The position numbers and the translations under genes are program-made. A stretch of DNA of 36,003 nt from Bacteroidota bacterium. Its GTDB lineage: Bacteria; Bacteroidota; Bacteroidia; Bacteroidales; JACABE01. Shown in pieces: positions 401-36,003 of the stretch (the first letter of the stretch is position 1; the number at the start of each line of letters is the position of its first letter). A model generated the notes under the pieces. It made no database searches. It was not told where the DNA came from and saw only the letters and a list, made by a program, of their open reading frames with translations. The stretch covers positions 1-36,003 of the forward strand of contig JACABE010000014.1 in the NCBI GenBank assembly GCA_013377005.1, read 5' to 3'.

Positions 401-420
401 ATAACCCGTTGTGCATTTAG
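401..420 (+). repeat. Left terminal inverted repeat of the IS
   Basis: ATAACCCGTTGTGCATTTAG is the exact reverse complement of 1374-1393. No mismatch in 20 bp. Confidence 0.95.
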
Positions 421-463
421 AAAAAAAAGTAAAAAAAGTTGTTCATTGAATTATAAAAATTCG

Positions 464-471
464 TATATTTG
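464..471 (+). promoter_or_regulatory. Transposase promoter, -7 box
   Basis: TATATTTG matches the Bacteroidota -7 consensus TAnnTTTG exactly. Candidate TTG -33 elements at 439-441 and 446-448 are 22 and 15 bp away, so spacing is imperfect. Because the box overlaps a possible TTG start at 469, it argues for translation starting at the downstream ATG. Confidence 0.55.
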
Positions 472-495
472 TTTAATAACCAGTTAAATAAATAT

Positions 496-1377
496 ATGAA
501 CAACTTTATACAAAATTACGAAATTATTTTAAAAAATCTTAGGAATCTTAATATAGATACTGAAATTTTTAATCAAATCCGAACACCAAAATTGAGCAAC
601 CTCGAAATTATTTCTATGAACATAACTGCTGAATATATGAGTATTGATAGTGAATGTCAGTTGTTTAGATTATTAAAAGGTACATATTTACAAGGTTTGA
701 TTGAAAGAAGTGTGTATAATCGGCGTAAAAGGAAGCTATTTGGTTTACTGGAGAATATTAGAATGACTCTATCAAACACTTTTAACGAATTTGAAGATTA
801 TTTTGTCGTTGATTCAATGCCTTTAGAGGTTTGTAAAAATTCCAGAGCATCAAGAAGTACGATTTGTAAAGAAAAAGATTTCTCTTTTCCCGATAAAGGC
901 TATTGTGCTTCTCAAGGTTGGTATTATTATGGATATAAACTTCATGGAATCTGTTCTATTAACGGGATTTTTCAAAGTATTGATATAACTCCTGCTTCGG
1001 TTCATGATATTCACTTTATTAAGGATATTCAGGAACAATTATCTGATTGTGTTATTATTGGCGATAAAGGTTATTTGTCTGCAGATATCCAACTTAATCT
1101 ATTTGAAACTTCTAATATAAGACTTGAAACTCCCATGCGAGCAAACCAGAAATCATTTAAACCTCAACCTTACATTTTCAGAAAAGCAAGAAAAAGAATT
1201 GAAACTTTATTCTCTCAATTATGTGATCAATTTCTGATTCGTAGAAATTATGCTAAAACTTTTGAAGGGTTTAAAACCAGAATTTTATCTAAAATAACTT
1301 CTATTACAATGATTCAGTTTCTTAATAAATTTGTCTTTTTTAGACCTTTAAACAATCTAAAAGTAAATCTTTCCTAA
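496..1377 (+). CDS. IS982-family DDE transposase
   Basis: A 293-residue transposase, the usual size for the family. The DDE triad is visible: the first Asp in FVVDSMPLEVCK, the second in IIGDKGYLS, and the Glu in RKRIETLFSQL. Other family-like stretches are YYYGYKLHG and the C-terminal region FEGFKTRILSKIT. The frame can be extended upstream to a TTG at 469, but a -7 promoter box overlaps that codon, so ATG at 496 is preferred. The stop codon overlaps the right inverted repeat. No frameshift or internal stop is seen, so the enzyme is probably functional. Family assignment rests on remembered motif resemblance; the wider DDE_Tnp_1/IS4-IS5 clan is the fallback. Confidence 0.9.
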   Translation: MNNFIQNYEIILKNLRNLNIDTEIFNQIRTPKLSNLEIISMNITAEYMSIDSECQLFRLLKGTYLQGLIERSVYNRRKRKLFGLLENIRMTLSNTFNEFEDYFVVDSMPLEVCKNSRASRSTICKEKDFSFPDKGYCASQGWYYYGYKLHGICSINGIFQSIDITPASVHDIHFIKDIQEQLSDCVIIGDKGYLSADIQLNLFETSNIRLETPMRANQKSFKPQPYIFRKARKRIETLFSQLCDQFLIRRNYAKTFEGFKTRILSKITSITMIQFLNKFVFFRPLNNLKVNLS

Positions 1378-1393
1378 ATGCACAACGGGTTAT
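1374..1393 (-). repeat. Right terminal inverted repeat of the IS
   Basis: Exact inverted copy of 401-420; the transposase stop codon lies at its inner edge. Confidence 0.95.
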
Positions 1394-1443
1394 TTTATAA
1401 TTATTTACTTTTTGAAAAGAAGTTTTTTCATCCGTAAGATAAG

Positions 1444-1566
1444 TATATTGTAAGAAAATGTTCTTACGGTGGGCGTAACGTCACTATATTGTAATATAGT
1501 TGCCTTACGGTGAGCATAACGTCACTATATTCTAATATAGTTGTCTTACGGTGAGCGTAACGTCAC
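1444..1566. repeat. Tandem array A, three 41-bp units
   Basis: Units start at 1444, 1485 and 1526. All share the half TTACGGTGAGCGTAACGTCA with small changes. Units 2 and 3 carry the palindrome ACTATATT-2nt-AATATAGT at their left junction (1483-1500 and 1524-1541). Unit 1 has a different palindrome, GTAAGAA-AATG-TTCTTAC (1450-1467). The variable half thus keeps a hairpin although its sequence changed. The period is not a multiple of three and no reading frame crosses the array. Confidence 0.9.
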
Positions 1567-1579
1567 TATATTGTCTCGA

Positions 1580-1784
1580 TATTGCCTCAACTTGAAGTTG
1601 AAGCCTTAATGAGTTCTCGATAGTATCTCAACTTCACGCTGAAGCCTTAACGAGTTTTCGATATGGTTCCAACTTCACGCCGAAGCCTTAATGAGTTCTC
1701 GATATGAGCTCAACTTCACGCCAAGGTCTTAACAAGTTCTCGATATAGTCTCAGCCTGACGCCGAAGCCTTAACGAGTTCTCGA
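1580..1784. repeat. Tandem array B, five 41-bp units plus a partial
   Basis: Units start at 1580, 1621, 1662, 1703 and 1744; a sixth degenerate piece begins at 1785. The consensus contains AACTTCACGCCGAAGCCTTA followed by GAGTTCTCGATA. The sequence is unrelated to array A but the period is also 41 bp. The arrays meet in a 13-bp hybrid (1567-1579) that starts like an A unit and ends like a B unit. Weak hairpins (CTTC-5nt-GAAG) occur in most units. The rest of the interval 1394-1863 holds no gene. Confidence 0.9.
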
Positions 1785-1863
1785 TATGAGCTCAAAGCGA
1801 GCTTGAACTCAAATAATTCTTTTGGGGTTTGAATTAGTTATAGAAAAGAAAATGATGCAGGAC

Positions 1864-2610
1864 TTAATTATATTCTATTTTGCGAACAATTAAGCTTTCG
1901 GGATTGCGTTCTTTAAAACTGATTTTGTTAATCCAGTTGTCGTTATTATCATATTTATATTCATAATAATAATTTGTTTTGCTACCATCATTATTGGTAG
2001 TTATTTCCTGAATGATGTTCTTTTTATCATCATAAATATAATTAATCTTTTTATTCAACTTGCCGTCTGCCGAATACCTGAGGTTTTCAACTCTGTTGCC
2101 TTTTATATCGTATGTATAGGTAAATCTTTTCTGTAATTTATTTTCAGCATTAAAACTCATGTCTTCCATAAGATTTCCTTCGGCATCGTACTTATAGGTG
2201 TATTTCTTTTCTAATTGCCCCTCCTGATTATAACTAATATCTTCCGAAACGTTACCCATTTCGTTGTATTGATATATTATTTTCCTGTTCAGCTTTCCAT
2301 CCGAAAAGTATTGGTCTTGCTCAGTCCTTTTGCCTTGTTCGTCGCAGATATAAACATATTTTTTATCTATTTTCCCCGCAGAATCGCACTTTAAATCTTC
2401 TATCTTATTGCCTCGTTTGTCGAATGTATTAAAATATGACAAATCAAGTATTTCACTCTGGGCTTTGTCTTTTTCCTGGGTAATCTGATAGTAAGATTCG
2501 TGAATACTCTTAATATTTCCTTTGAGATTGAGTTTTGTTAAATCATTTTTTTGCCCGTACAAATATGCAGATAAAAGAAATGCTAAAACGACAGCTAATT
2601 TTGTTTTCAT
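1864..2610 (-). CDS. Secreted protein of about seven 26-residue repeats
   Basis: A 248-residue protein with a signal peptide in the first 19 or so residues (MKTKLAVVLAFLLSAYLYG). From about residue 58 to the end it consists of near-perfect 26-residue repeats of the form YxYDxxGNxxEDxxYxxxGKLxKK. Each would form a beta-hairpin-like unit, resembling the WG/MORN/YD-type repeat proteins of Bacteroidota. No catalytic residues stand out and no T9SS sorting domain is present, so a periplasmic or outer-surface location is inferred. The start codon is only 3 bp after the stop codon of the upstream DUF5655 gene, so the two are almost certainly co-transcribed. The precise function is unknown. Confidence 0.8.
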   Translation of the reverse strand: MKTKLAVVLAFLLSAYLYGQKNDLTKLNLKGNIKSIHESYYQITQEKDKAQSEILDLSYFNTFDKRGNKIEDLKCDSAGKIDKKYVYICDEQGKRTEQDQYFSDGKLNRKIIYQYNEMGNVSEDISYNQEGQLEKKYTYKYDAEGNLMEDMSFNAENKLQKRFTYTYDIKGNRVENLRYSADGKLNKKINYIYDDKKNIIQEITTNNDGSKTNYYYEYKYDNNDNWINKISFKERNPESLIVRKIEYN

Positions 2611-2613
2611 GAG

Positions 2614-3525
2614 TTATTTTTTATTCTTTTTAATTGATTGTTTTATTAAACTTAAAATGTATTCTAAATTATCGTCATTGTCAATTTGCAACTCATAATC
2701 ACCATTTCCCCAATGTCCTGTTGCTGAAACATCTCTCGTTATGTTCTTTGAATCTTCAAGTTCCCCTTTGCTAAGATTTATCCACAATTTGATAGCTTTT
2801 TTTTGTGGATGAATATCTACAATATTTTTGCCTGAAACAAAAGCAATGTATTTTTTCTTTGGCTTAATTTCTATATTGTCAAAATTCAAAATCGCTCCTT
2901 TTAATTTCTCATAAAGTTCAACAATTTCATCACTAGCATTATCAAGATGTTCTTGTTCTGAATAAACAAAAATTTCTTTAGCCACAGTTTCAAAAGTTTC
3001 ATCTGTTTTTGAAATTGTCTTTATACTTTCTTGTGCACCTGCTTTTTGAATTTGGTCATAAGAAACAGTGTCATTATCAAATCGCTTTATTTCCCATAAT
3101 TCAATAGGTAAATCCTTGAAATTAATCGCTTCTCGTTGATAATTTGTAAAGCCAGGAGAAATAAACATTACACGTGATTGTGACCAATCAACATCTGCTC
3201 GTTTTAATAATTTCTCTTGTTTCTCATTATATTCTAAGATAAAATCTGCTTTGTTATTTAGCATTAGAGATAAATATGCATATCCTTGGTCAATAACACT
3301 AAAATTTTTATCCCTTTTATACTCAATAATTACAAAGGAGTTTGAATCATAATCAAATGCTAATGTGTCGATGCGAAAATTATTTAATGCAAACTCAGAT
3401 TTTACAAAGTCAAGACCAAAAATTAGTTTTAAATTATGTTCAGTTAATTCTTGTATTTCCTTTTCAAGCTTAAATGGTTTTTCCTTGATGTATTCAAGTT
3501 TTTTTTCAACTTTATATAGTGCCAT
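2614..3525 (-). CDS. PD-(D/E)XK-like protein with C-terminal DUF5655
   Basis: A 303-residue cytoplasmic protein without signal peptide or membrane segments. Residues 35-110 look like a restriction-nuclease fold: Asp53 in FRIDTLAFD, then Glu68 and Lys70 in IIEYKR, and Gln80, matching the D...ExK...Q arrangement of PD-(D/E)XK enzymes. Residues about 195-300 match my memory of DUF5655, including the GHWGNGDYE stretch. Proteins of this layout are annotated as uncharacterised or 'predicted transport' proteins; nuclease activity is inferred from the motif only. It is first in a two-gene unit with the secreted repeat protein, 3 bp apart. A possible -7 box lies at 3657-3664. The gene sits between two tandem repeat arrays. 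Confidence 0.75.
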   Translation of the reverse strand: MALYKVEKKLEYIKEKPFKLEKEIQELTEHNLKLIFGLDFVKSEFALNNFRIDTLAFDYDSNSFVIIEYKRDKNFSVIDQGYAYLSLMLNNKADFILEYNEKQEKLLKRADVDWSQSRVMFISPGFTNYQREAINFKDLPIELWEIKRFDNDTVSYDQIQKAGAQESIKTISKTDETFETVAKEIFVYSEQEHLDNASDEIVELYEKLKGAILNFDNIEIKPKKKYIAFVSGKNIVDIHPQKKAIKLWINLSKGELEDSKNITRDVSATGHWGNGDYELQIDNDDNLEYILSLIKQSIKKNKK

Positions 3526-3656
3526 AATTTATTTGTTTTGCTGTTAGTCAATTTTTTTATAATCAATATCAGCATTATTATACGACTGACAAAATCACCC
3601 TTTACCTATTATATTTGAGATTATAGTCCTAACAGATGTCATATTTATTTATCCGA

Positions 3657-3664
3657 CAAATGTA
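3657..3664 (-). promoter_or_regulatory. Possible -7 box for the DUF5655 gene
   Basis: The minus strand reads TACATTTG, an exact TAnnTTTG match about 130 bp before the start codon. No TTG at the expected -33 distance was seen, so support is moderate. Confidence 0.35.
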
Positions 3665-3797
3665 CAAATATTTTATTATCATGTAATTTATTTAACAAAA
3701 ACATATAGGGTTTAAGTAAGCACTATCATTACTTCGCAATTTAGGTTAAAGTATTATTAATAGTTGTATTAACAAATAGAGCATAGCGTAAAATATT

Positions 3798-3926
3798 TGC
3801 CGGATGACTACTCATGAGTGAGGAGTATATATCCGGCAAGTGCCGAATGACTATGCATGAGTTGGGAGTATATATCCGGCAACTGCCGGACGACTACTCA
3901 TGAGTCATGAGTACATATCCGGCAAA
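3798..3926. repeat. Three 43-bp tandem repeats forming hairpins
   Basis: Units start at 3798, 3841 and 3884; a fragment of a fourth follows at 3927. Each begins with GCCGGAT (or a one-base variant) and ends with its complement ATCCGGC, so each unit can fold on itself. Inside, unit 3 has a second inverted pair TACTCAT-5nt-ATGAGTA. The loop halves differ between units but the ends are kept. No frame crosses the array. It occupies the gap between the DUF5655 promoter region and the terminator of the TCA operon; the rest of 3526-4010 is AT-rich with nothing recognisable. Confidence 0.9.
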
Positions 3927-3942
3927 TGAAGGATGTATACCT

Positions 3943-3981
3943 ATAAAAAATCCTGTCAGCTTATTAAAAGCTAACAGGATT
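3943..3981 (-). terminator. Intrinsic terminator of the TCA-cycle operon
   Basis: The inverted pair AATCCTGTCAGCTT / AAGCTAACAGGATT (3949-3962 and 3968-3981, one mismatch) is followed on the minus strand by a run of T (3943-3948). It lies 30 bp past the stop codon of the TPR gene, the last gene of the operon. Confidence 0.85.
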
Positions 3982-4010
3982 TGTATTTTAATTTTTACTA
4001 TCGGATAGTT

Positions 4011-4685
4011 TTAGAAAGAATGATCGTCGCAAATATAATCATACATTTCCTGAGCATTGTTATTATAAGGATCCAGCTGAAGTACTTTTTTAAATTCTTC
4101 TTTTGCCAAATCGTATTTAAAAGTACGCATATAGGTACGTCCTAAATGGTAATGAGCCGAAACATGCGGATTGTTATCTTTAACCAGTTTTTCGAAATGA
4201 GGCAATGCTTCATCATATCTTCCGGTAGCTTTTAATGCAATTCCCATATAATAATTAGCCATTGTAGTATCAGGACATAACTCTAATAGTCTTCTGTAGC
4301 TTTCGATACTATCTTCTTCTTTTCCCATGTGATAATAACACAAGCCCATCCAGATATAGGTCATAGGCATATATTTTCCTGATTCAATTATTTTTGTAAA
4401 TGCCTCAATAGCTTGGGAAAAAAGAGTTGCACGATACATAGCAACACCCATTCTATAGTAAACAAAAATACTTTCAGGACGAAGTTTTAGTACTTTTTTA
4501 TAAGAACAAATACATTTATTCATTTCGCCAAGTATATAATATAAACTTGCTACTTCCATCAATAAATGTGTGCTGTCGGGAAACTCTTCCAGTTTAGCTT
4601 CAAAAACACTGACAGCTTCTCTAATATCGCCGTTTAATACATGCGTATAGGCTTCTTCCAAACGATAATCACCAAACTCTTTCAT
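4011..4685 (-). CDS. TPR-repeat protein, last gene of the TCA operon
   Basis: A 224-residue soluble protein built almost wholly of about six tetratricopeptide repeats; units such as AIEAFTKIIESGKYMPMTYI and YDLAKEEFKKVLQLDPYNNN show the helix-turn-helix pattern. No signal peptide, membrane segment or catalytic domain is present, so it probably acts as a cytoplasmic protein-interaction scaffold. It follows the citrate synthase gene by 42 bp on the same strand and precedes the operon terminator. A role in assembling or controlling the TCA enzymes is suggested only by position. Confidence 0.8.
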   Translation of the reverse strand: MKEFGDYRLEEAYTHVLNGDIREAVSVFEAKLEEFPDSTHLLMEVASLYYILGEMNKCICSYKKVLKLRPESIFVYYRMGVAMYRATLFSQAIEAFTKIIESGKYMPMTYIWMGLCYYHMGKEEDSIESYRRLLELCPDTTMANYYMGIALKATGRYDEALPHFEKLVKDNNPHVSAHYHLGRTYMRTFKYDLAKEEFKKVLQLDPYNNNAQEMYDYICDDHSF

Positions 4686-32276: not shown

Positions 32277-33059
32277 ATGAAAAAGAAATTTATACATGAT
32301 ATGTTAGTGCTCGAAAATAAGATTTTGAGCGATAAATACTTCCTGCTTAGTATACAGCCCCCAATAGCAATGCCGGCAATAGCTGCCGGTCAGTTTGCTC
32401 AGCTTGAAATTAATGACTCAAAAAACACTTTTTTACGTCGTCCGATAAGTATTCATGATGTTGACTATAAAAATAATATCGTGAAACTGCTTGTTCAGGT
32501 TGTGGGTGAAGGGACTAAGAAACTTTCTACAATAAAGGCTGGAGAAACGCTAAATTTAGTTTATCCATTGGGTAATACATTTTCGTTGCCAAAGCATGAT
32601 AAAGATAATGTATTATTGGTTGGTGGAGGCTGTGGTATTGCACCTTTGCTTTATTTAGCAAGAACTTTATCCGAAAAAGGAATCAAAGTAACAACATTGG
32701 TAGGCGGTGCTACTCAATGCGACATTCTCGAAGCTGCTGAATACCGCAAATATGGAGAATTACTTATTACTACCATGGATGCATCTGTAGGCGAAAAGGG
32801 CTTGGTTACCCAACACAGTATTTTTAAAGCGGAAAAGTTTAATTATTCAAAAATATATACCTGCGGACCTGAACCTATGATGAAAGCATTGGCAACTATT
32901 GCCCGTGAAAAAGAGATTGATTGTGAAGTTTCTCTCGAAAATATGATGGCTTGCGGTGTTGGAGCTTGTTTGTGTTGTGTAGTTGATACCATAGATGGTA
33001 ATAAATGTACTTGCATCGAAGGTCCTGTTTTTGATTACAAAGAAATAAAAGGATGGTGA
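32277..33059 (+). CDS. pyrK: Dihydroorotate dehydrogenase B, electron-transfer subunit
   Basis: FAD/2Fe-2S subunit that passes electrons from dihydroorotate oxidation in PyrD to NAD+, in de novo pyrimidine synthesis. The 260-residue protein shows the FAD-binding RRPISIHD (54-61), the nucleotide-binding VGGGCGIAPLLYL (115-127) and the 2Fe-2S ligands Cys226, Cys231, Cys234 and Cys246 in the ACGVGACLCC ... CTCIEGPVF region. PyrD follows 141 bp later on the same strand, separated by a short-repeat tract. Together they form the class 1B heterotetramer. Confidence 0.94.
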   Translation: MKKKFIHDMLVLENKILSDKYFLLSIQPPIAMPAIAAGQFAQLEINDSKNTFLRRPISIHDVDYKNNIVKLLVQVVGEGTKKLSTIKAGETLNLVYPLGNTFSLPKHDKDNVLLVGGGCGIAPLLYLARTLSEKGIKVTTLVGGATQCDILEAAEYRKYGELLITTMDASVGEKGLVTQHSIFKAEKFNYSKIYTCGPEPMMKALATIAREKEIDCEVSLENMMACGVGACLCCVVDTIDGNKCTCIEGPVFDYKEIKGW

Positions 33060-33060
33060 T

Positions 33061-33114
33061 TAAAGGATAAAGGATAAAGGATAAAGGATAAAAGGATAAA
33101 GGATAAAGGTTAAA
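33061..33114. repeat. 7-bp microsatellite after pyrK
   Basis: About seven copies of TAAAGGA, one with an extra A and the last ending in T, starting directly after the pyrK stop codon. Its length would be prone to slippage. Confidence 0.9.
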
Positions 33115-33147
33115 GTAGAAAAATAAGCTATACTAAGTTTTTCTTTT

Positions 33148-35312: not shown

Positions 35313-35517
35313 AAAGAGTAATTAACAAAATATGACAGATATGAGTTATAACGTTGAATTACTATACGATTACTATGTTAATAAATATCTAACTAATAGA
35401 TTTTTCAATTAAAAAAATGACTATATTCAAAGATAAATTACTTCTATCGGAAAACTTAAGTAGCAAACAGTATTTACGTATATTTTTAGTTTCGGTAATT
35501 AAAGTATAAAAAATTTA

Positions 35518-35646
35518 GAACGCTGATTAAACGGATACGTTCCGTAAACGCGGATTTTCACGAATTATTCAGAATGTTTTGATTTTCAAATATTAATAAT
35601 CTGATTTATCAGCGTTTCCCTTTAAGGATCTGCATCATCCGCGTTC
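35518..35646 (+). repeat. Dispersed 129-bp element, copy 1
   Basis: Starts GAACGCTGATTAAACGGAT and ends CATCCGCGTTC. The ends form an imperfect inverted repeat, and two further inverted pairs lie inside (AACGCTGAT with ATCAGCGTT, AACGCGGAT with ATCCGCGTT). Confidence 0.85.
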
Positions 35647-35739
35647 AAATAAACAAACCACAACACTATTTTTAGCAACTTAATTAGTAAACAGTACATA
35701 CGTATATTTTTAGTTTTGGTAATTAATTTAAAAACATTA

Positions 35740-35867
35740 GAACGCTGATTAAACGGATACGTTCCGTAAACGCGGATTTTCACAAATTTTTCAGAATTTT
35801 TTGATTTTCATATATTAATAATCTGTTTTATCAGCGTTTCCCTGAGGGATCTGCGTCAACCGCGTTC
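35740..35867 (+). repeat. Dispersed 128-bp element, copy 2
   Basis: Nearly identical to copy 1, differing mainly in the AT-rich centre and near the right end (GTCAACCGCGTTC). Same orientation. Confidence 0.85.
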
Positions 35868-35981
35868 AAATAAACAAATCAGAGGGTTCAATACTTTAGT
35901 TTACACTATTTTTAGCAACTTAATTAGTAAACAGTACATACGTATATATTTAGTTTCGGTAATTAAAGTATAAAAAATTTA

Positions 35982-36003
35982 GAACGCTGATTAAACGGAT
36001 ACG
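35982..36003 (+). repeat. Dispersed element, copy 3, cut by the window edge
   Basis: The first 22 bases repeat the start of copies 1 and 2 exactly (GAACGCTGATTAAACGGAT), then the window ends. Confidence 0.8.

What the first reader, a model, noticed from the sequence alone, without database searches (positions are those of the whole stretch)
1444..1784. Two unrelated tandem arrays share one exact 41-bp period and meet in a hybrid unit
Array A (3 units) and array B (5 units) have different sequences but both repeat every 41 bp, and they join through a 13-bp piece that starts like A and ends like B. Array A units keep a palindrome although its sequence differs between unit 1 and units 2-3, which hints that structure is selected. 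Forty-one bp is close to four helical turns, so regularly phased protein binding is one idea; a replication-slippage origin is the null model.
Basis: partly seen in the sequence, partly recalled or inferred. Interest (0 to 1): 0.58.

Follow-up and report, generated by a model that had tools for sequence, protein, structure and literature searches.

The report
Fixed-length repeats with changing sequence
The stretch is one patchwork array of repeats, each about 41 letters long, in an uncultured bacterium whose relatives carry many such arrays with the same unit length (21 or about 42) but unrelated sequences, so something other than the sequence seems to set the length.

Summary
The repeats are real: a 41-bp lattice runs from about 1444 to 1801 (130 of 164 lag-41 matches in the best stretch; 300 shuffles reach at most 70). 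"Two unrelated arrays" is wrong: a second array in the genome (contig C22) matches both parts in one register, so A and B are diverged ends of one composite array.

The length is no local coincidence. In 1.76 Mb from six related Bacteroidales-type draft genomes, 21 of 31 non-coding arrays with periods of 25-60 bp have 41-43 bp units; among 34 arrays, 1 of 561 pairs matches in sequence. A 21-bp class also occurs. In 1.50 Mb of other bacteria: 1 of 8. One same-genus genome shows none in 362 kb.

Palindromes are commoner than in shuffles, but compensatory changes are nearly absent (2 of 138 departures), so selection on structure is not supported.

The kind is known: constant-size, variable-sequence bacterial tandem repeats (PMC8161180), reported at 20-21 and 52 nt. 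A 41-43 bp class beside 21 bp looks like a new variant. Mechanism is open; I favour, as inference, tandem duplication in about 21-bp steps; phased protein binding is the main rival.

The parts
1444..1566 (.). Array A: three 41-bp units (1444, 1485, 1526)
   Evidence: TRF 1463-1574 period 41, 2.7 copies, 91% matches; frame view
1567..1607 (.). Transition unit: first 8 bases as in A, then B-like; keeps the 41-bp register
   Evidence: 22/41 to A unit 2 and 30/41 to the B unit at 1608, each best of 41 shifts; only 16/41 to A unit 3
1608..1801 (.). Array B in the same lattice (units at 1608, 1649, 1690, 1731, part unit at 1772). TRF frames it as 1574-1795, 5.4 copies
3798..3926. Second array in the window, 43-bp period, 3 units, outer palindrome TTGCCGGAT...ATCCGGCAA; begins about 20 bp after a hairpin with a T-run (read by eye; the scanner does not list it) downstream of the TPR gene
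   Evidence: TRF period 43, 3.0 copies; palindrome p 0.015; the corresponding site in L096 holds a 42-bp array of other sequence
401..1393 (+). IS982-family insertion sequence next to the array (transposase 469-1377; 20-bp terminal inverted repeats 401-420 and 1374-1393); neighbour, not part of the array
   Evidence: NF033520 transpos_IS982, 239 bits against cut-off 130; ends read
1864..2610 (-). Neighbouring gene with weak RHS-repeat similarity; its stop codon lies about 63 bp beyond the array end
   Evidence: Pfam PF05593 29.6 bits; ORF list

Best explanation
Shown: 1444-1801 is one composite intergenic minisatellite with a 41-bp lattice, present in a second diverged copy on contig C22. It belongs to a set of intergenic arrays, spread over several related genomes, whose unit length is 21 or 41-43 bp whatever the sequence. 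Inferred: the length is imposed by how the arrays are made. A process in this lineage duplicates non-coding DNA in steps of about 21 or 42 bp (two or four helical turns). Once a unit is doubled, ordinary slippage or unequal exchange adds copies and spreads variants. A later step of the same length at an array's edge takes in flanking sequence, so a new sequence joins in register; this gives transition units such as 1567-1607. Point mutation then blurs the parts until A and B look unrelated. Palindromic, relatively GC-rich intergenic DNA may be where it starts, for instance by hairpin stalling. The agent that measures 21 bp is unknown.
For: Period concentration: 21 of 31 non-coding arrays (25-60 bp) in six related genomes at 41-43 bp, against 1 of 8 in other bacteria, Fisher p 0.013. 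The lag spectrum has peaks at 21 (14 loci), 41-43 (28), 63 (11), 84 (14) and 126 (12), with 0 at 20, 22 and 31; part of these are harmonics of the same arrays; the other bacteria show no such peaks. Sequence independence: of 561 pairs among 34 arrays only window B/L053 match at E<=0.001; no 5-7-mer is shared beyond the 95th percentile of shuffled maxima, 31 arrays. Composites in register: L053 unit 6, L066, L201, L214 and the tail unit of L069 rank 1 of their shifts. Gain at a site: after one gene the own genome has a 43-bp and L096 a 42-bp array of different sequence; L095, L097 and L099 have none in the roughly 750 bp shown.
Against: No enzyme or protein was found. Cas1 occurs in 1 of 4 array-bearing genomes, and Y1 transposase and reverse transcriptase also occur in G001 and G002, whose samples show no 41-43 bp arrays. 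Composites in L067 (ranks 3, 7, 24), L095b (ranks 2 and 4) and L053 unit 7 (rank 2) do not pass the register test. Support from inside genes is thin: the repeat in a PstC gene (L071 12343-13530, TIGR02138 over its cut-off), which TRF bp, has one 39-bp and one 42-bp unit when read, and other in-gene arrays have other periods. I lowered this confidence from 0.42 to 0.40 for that reason. A helix-based ruler would also allow 31-32 and 52-53 bp, which are nearly absent. Arrays are GC-richer than their 60-bp flanks (0.39 against 0.29), which plain copying of random intergenic DNA does not predict.
Confidence: 0.4

Rival explanations
1. Phased protein scaffold: a nucleoid-type protein polymerises along DNA with 21-bp or 42-bp spacing; arrays are selected because repeating any weak site in phase with the helix makes a stable complex, for instance for nucleoid organisation. 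Subirana and Messeguer propose such a protein for their 20-21 and 52 nt arrays.
For: The lengths are close to 2 and 4 turns. The period is kept while sequence changes. Palindromes exceed shuffles in 7 of 29 unit families at p<=0.05, as expected of dimer sites. GC is higher than the flanks. The authors propose it in PMC8161180.
Against: No short sequence is shared between arrays beyond shuffles, unlike the Bacillus species in that paper. No A/T phasing at 10.5 bp (mean power 1.06). Almost no compensatory change in palindromes. A same-genus genome shows no array in 362 kb.
Confidence: 0.28
2. Structured RNA: arrays are transcribed from neighbouring genes and act as hairpin-rich RNAs or transcript-end structures.
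For: Folding of 1444-1801 minus strand z -4.3 and plus strand -2.4; 3798-3926 minus strand z -7.3. Published RNA-seq hits for 52-nt arrays in B. coagulans (PMC8625621, passages).
Against: Tandem palindromes fold well by construction. Departures in the arms show more A-C (40) than G-U (19) pairs on the strand as given and 2 compensatory changes of 138. No Rfam match. The scanner lists no terminator-like site in either array; promoter-like sites in 1380-4020 number 18 against 13.5 +- 3.7 in shuffles, one just before array A (1412-1440) and one inside the 43-bp array.
Confidence: 0.1
3. Plain replication slippage: each array is an accident of local sequence and the shared 41 bp is chance.
For: Slippage explains growth of any single array. 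Copy numbers are low and units diverged.
Against: Periods of unrelated arrays would scatter; they do not (21 of 31 at 41-43 bp, binomial p 4e-16 against a uniform 25-60). The uniform null is crude.
Confidence: 0.06
4. Mobile array: a MITE-like or other element carries pre-formed arrays to new sites.
For: The window array and L053 are two diverged copies of one composite array in different gene contexts. L067 and L069 share a 71-bp tail. An IS982 lies 50 bp away.
Against: No flank homology between window and L053 was found. Of 34 arrays no other two match. The IS ends do not coincide with the array.
Confidence: 0.14

Closest known systems
Constant-size, variable-sequence bacterial tandem repeats (Subirana and Messeguer; PMC8161180 parts 1-4 of 5 read; the 2020 J. 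Bacteriol. paper PMC7549362 not held)
   Same: Many short non-coding arrays per genome, one unit length, unrelated sequences, patchy between related species, partial turnover; 21-bp units also found here
   Different: Reported sizes are 20-21 and 52 nt; here 41-43 dominates together with 21. Bacillus arrays share short species-specific sequences; none found here beyond shuffles. The host is an uncultured Bacteroidales-type bacterium
BrickBuilt minisatellite/MITE of Porphyromonas gingivalis (PMC4596501, abstract and outline read)
   Same: Intergenic tandem arrays in Bacteroidales, many per genome
   Different: 23-nt unit of one sequence with leader and tail inverted ends; here sequences differ between loci and no shared ends were found
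F-plasmid sopC centromere (details recalled; only a search listing seen)
   Same: Tandem units of 43 bp each with an inverted repeat, as recalled
   Different: One site per replicon with its own partner protein, as recalled; here many loci of different sequence and no partition gene among the 7 window proteins scanned
Intergenic tandem repeats of freshwater Planctomycetota (PMC9426551, two passages read, one of them a reference list)
   Same: Intergenic tandem repeats in lake bacteria
   Different: The passage read gives no constant unit length

Membership tests
Constant-size, variable-sequence tandem repeats | Several arrays per genome with the same unit length | tested here: met
   10 arrays at 41-43 bp in 832 kb of the own genome
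Constant-size, variable-sequence tandem repeats | Unit sequences unrelated between arrays | tested here: met
   1 of 561 pairs among 34 arrays matches; no shared 5-7-mers beyond shuffles
Constant-size, variable-sequence tandem repeats | Non-coding | tested here: met
   Window arrays lie between ORFs; in-gene repeats exist elsewhere
Constant-size, variable-sequence tandem repeats | Unit size 20-21 or 52 nt as published | tested here: not met
   41 and 43 bp in the window; 21 bp in other arrays, of the own genome and of relatives. Hence filed as a variant of the kind, not a member of a published size class
Constant-size, variable-sequence tandem repeats | Short species-specific sequences common to most arrays of a species | tested here: not met
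   10 arrays of the own genome and 31 in all: best shared k-mers do not exceed the 95th percentile of shuffled maxima; closest is AGTCAT in 4 of 10 own arrays (0.3 expected for that word, but shuffled maximum 3.7 on average)
Constant-size, variable-sequence tandem repeats | Transcription (reported for one species) | not testable with these tools
   No RNA data
MITE-type minisatellite (BrickBuilt) | Same unit and same inverted ends at many loci | tested here: not met
   Whole-genome search finds 2 loci for the window array at E<=0.001; no shared ends between window and L053
CRISPR array | Constant repeat with unrelated spacers, beside cas genes | tested here: not met
   No spacer pattern in 1444-1801; Cas1 absent from 3 of 4 array-bearing genomes searched
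Plasmid-type centromere (sopC-like) | Adjacent partition genes | tested here: not met
   None among the 7 window proteins scanned
REP elements made by RAYT transposases | Presence of Y1 transposase follows presence of arrays | tested here: not met
   Y1_Tnp in 7 of 7 genomes, including G001 and G002, whose samples show no 41-43 bp arrays

The most novel reading that the evidence does not exclude
A length-quantised DNA duplication process with a 21-bp ruler works in this lineage. An unknown nucleoprotein or enzyme duplicates non-coding DNA in 21- or 42-bp steps regardless of sequence, and the arrays are its footprint. The published 20-21 and 52 nt classes would then be other settings of the same kind of ruler (two, four and five helical turns).
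Probability: 0.25. Interest if true: 0.85.

Novelty: new variant of a known kind. Interest (0 to 1): 0.52.

Why it matters
Why some bacteria hold many tandem arrays of one length and no common sequence is an open question raised in print (PMC8161180). These genomes add a length class around 42 bp, twice one of the two published ones, and give material for a test: array-rich and array-poor genomes within one genus, composite arrays that change sequence without losing register, and one site with arrays of different sequence in two genomes. Comparing the gene content of such neighbours could point to the agent.

Tried and rejected
Shared motif: 5-, 6- and 7-mers over 31 arrays, none beyond the 95th percentile of shuffled maxima. 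Intrinsic curvature: A/T power at 10.5 bp is 1.06, no excess. Hidden 21-bp halves inside 42-bp units: lag-21 similarity stands out only in L067a, L095a and L208. RNA pairing: more A-C than G-U departures, 2 compensatory of 138 (24 of the 40 unit families had a qualifying arm pair, and some rows run past an array edge, which inflates the departures). CRISPR origin, suggested by an array next to a Cas12a CRISPR (L071): Cas1 missing in three array-bearing genomes. Y1 transposase and reverse transcriptase: no pattern. Collection scan for paired B-type cores: 0 hits, with the own or near genomes possibly left out of that collection. Rfam: none. Paper searches: '42-bp tandem repeats' with intergenic and bacteria, 0; '42 nt' with tandem repeats and Subirana, one satellite-DNA review, listing only. 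Against novelty: a table in PMC6749651 lists a small 42-nt family in Bacillus (Fam_65_42_3, 3 members) among families its authors mostly take for coding repeats (passages), and the 2020 survey of 1241 genomes could not be read. So a printed 42-bp non-coding class cannot be excluded.

Rows dropped or pooled: L040 (42/21 bp) left out of the non-coding counts as probably a gene; L255 left out because it overlaps L099; CRISPR periods (62, 128) are in the histogram but outside the 25-60 counts; L071 and L208 were called 84 by TRF and are not in the 21 of 31 but are in the 23 arrays. L239 (1.9 copies) is weak but counted. L095 was pooled with G004 because size and first-look counts agree, an inference; G003/L099 and G002/L097 share contig lengths (28,179 and 125,622). 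No kinship is told for G060, the genome of L096; I treat it as a relative because its aconitase is 85% identical to the window's, as against 84% for same-genus G002. The 29 unit families are not independent (parts of one composite count apart). One search tested the first 21 arrays against 106 loci; one search tested 34 arrays against each other.

Full report
What is there. The window is contig C6 (1-36003) of a 3.69-Mb draft genome in 92 contigs. Its closest named relatives by aconitase are metagenome genomes titled uncultured bacterium, Bacteroidetes bacterium and Bacteroidales bacterium; I call the group Bacteroidales-type on that basis. Between an IS982 element (transposase 469-1377, NF033520) and a reverse-strand gene ending at 1864 lies a 41-bp lattice: three A units, one transition unit and B units to about 1801. 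It is far beyond chance.

A and B are one composite array. Compared directly they are not alike in register. But a second array in the same genome, L053 15652-15980 on contig C22, found at E 8e-26, bridges them. With its register fixed on the B core alone, the three A units, the transition unit and the four full B units tested each have their best matches in register, rank 1 of 41 shifts. The best of 600 ungapped offsets places the arrays end to end with A-like units facing A and B-like facing B, 208 of 358 matches; a shift by one unit gives 203, so exact unit-to-unit pairing is not proved. The arrays share no flanking sequence that I could find.

The period is a property of the lineage. Tandem Repeats Finder on 832 kb of the own genome and on samples of five relatives (1.76 Mb in all; kinship of G060 inferred), with gene-like arrays removed, gave 31 non-coding arrays of period 25-60, of which 21 are 41-43 bp. 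By genome, counting two arrays that TRF called 84: own genome 10 in 832 kb, G060 5 in 191 kb, G003 3 in 103 kb, G004 with L095 5 in 109 kb, G001 0 in 168 kb, G002 0 in 362 kb. Zero in G002 is unlikely at the own genome's rate (p 0.013); zero in G001 is not (p 0.13). In 1.50 Mb of other bacteria, mostly Bacteroidota with some Marinimicrobia and others, 1 of 8 arrays falls at 41-43. A lag count without TRF gives the same picture and adds a 21-bp class (14 loci at 21; none at 20 or 22), with multiples at 63, 84 and 126, partly harmonics. The 21-bp arrays, mainly in G060 and G004 with a few in the own genome and G001, also differ in sequence.

Sequence is free, length is not. Of 561 pairs among 34 arrays only window B and L053 match at E<=0.001. 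With flanks included, L067 and L069 share a 71-bp tail, and the 21-bp part of L067 matches a place in L068. No short word is shared beyond shuffles. Several arrays are composites: part of the unit changes while the register holds (L053 unit 6, L066, L201, L214, L069 tail rank 1); L067, L095b and L053 unit 7 do not meet this test. Downstream of the TPR gene that ends at 4011, the window has a 43-bp array just after a hairpin with a T-run (by eye); the corresponding site in L096 has a 42-bp array of different sequence, while L095, L097 and L099 show none in the stretch printed. These look like independent gains, though fast turnover of one old array is not excluded.

Palindromes. In 29 unit families the best inverted repeat beats dinucleotide shuffles at p<=0.05 in 7 (1.5 expected; combined p 2e-6, families not fully independent); 8 of 29 have p above 0.4, array B among them. 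Within arrays, arm pairs depart from the common pair in 138 of 675 cells and only 2 departures are compensatory. So palindromes are enriched but not maintained. In array A the palindromes of unit 1 and units 2-3 are at different places. Folding scores add little, since tandem palindromes fold well by construction.

Mechanism. I favour a duplication process with a 21-bp step, because length is quantised, sequence is arbitrary and the trait is patchy within a genus. This is inference; no agent is identified. A repeat inside a PstC gene (L071 12343-13530, TIGR02138) looked like in-gene support, but on reading it has a 39-bp and a 42-bp unit, so it counts for little. Selection for phased protein binding is the main rival. 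It explains GC enrichment (arrays 0.39, flanks 0.29) and palindromes better, but would lead one to expect a shared motif. Cas1, Y1 transposase and reverse transcriptase do not track the arrays.

Known or new. [quoted passage not shown] they suggest a polymerising protein, nucleoid stabilisation or small RNAs, and note that 20-21 nt is two helical turns (PMC8161180, parts 1-4 of 5 read). The 41-43 bp class, its coexistence with 21 bp in related genomes, and composites in register are additions, as far as the searches named in Tried and rejected show. The earlier survey paper could not be read, so a 42-nt class there cannot be excluded.

Noticed in passing
L071 7254-8556 (own genome C12): A Cas12a gene (TIGR04330, 1592 bits) and its CRISPR array (repeat type recognised from memory) are followed within about 30 bp by a five-unit 42-bp array of the class described here.
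   Followed up: partly
window 401-1393: IS982-family insertion sequence with 20-bp terminal inverted repeats; a 28-bp piece matching its right end lies at L049 34-61 (93%).
   Followed up: partly
window 3632-3704: A stretch of about 55-70 bp before the 43-bp array has relatives (78-88% identical) at several places of the own genome (L070 twice, L069, L053, L048): an unidentified dispersed element.
   Followed up: no
window 35453-36003: A 222-bp tandem repeat (2.4 copies) runs to the end of the window and may be why the contig stops there.
   Followed up: no
window 33045-33122: Heptamer array (TAAAGGA); similar 7-bp-based arrays with periods 28 and 49 occur in G001 (L177), a different type from the 21/42 class.
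   Followed up: no
L040 7284-7607: Small cysteine-rich ORF (107 aa) with seven-residue CKGDAKS repeats, that is a 21-bp period inside a probable gene; no NCBIfam match.
   Followed up: partly
L067 12929-12999 and L069 12879-12949: Two different arrays end in one shared 71-bp element (76% identical); one further partial match lies at C1:321017-321072, and one inside the L067 array itself.
   Followed up: partly
G000 C12, C23, C36, C56: Five Y1 transposase copies with identical scores and frame lengths, suggesting a recently active element.
   Followed up: no
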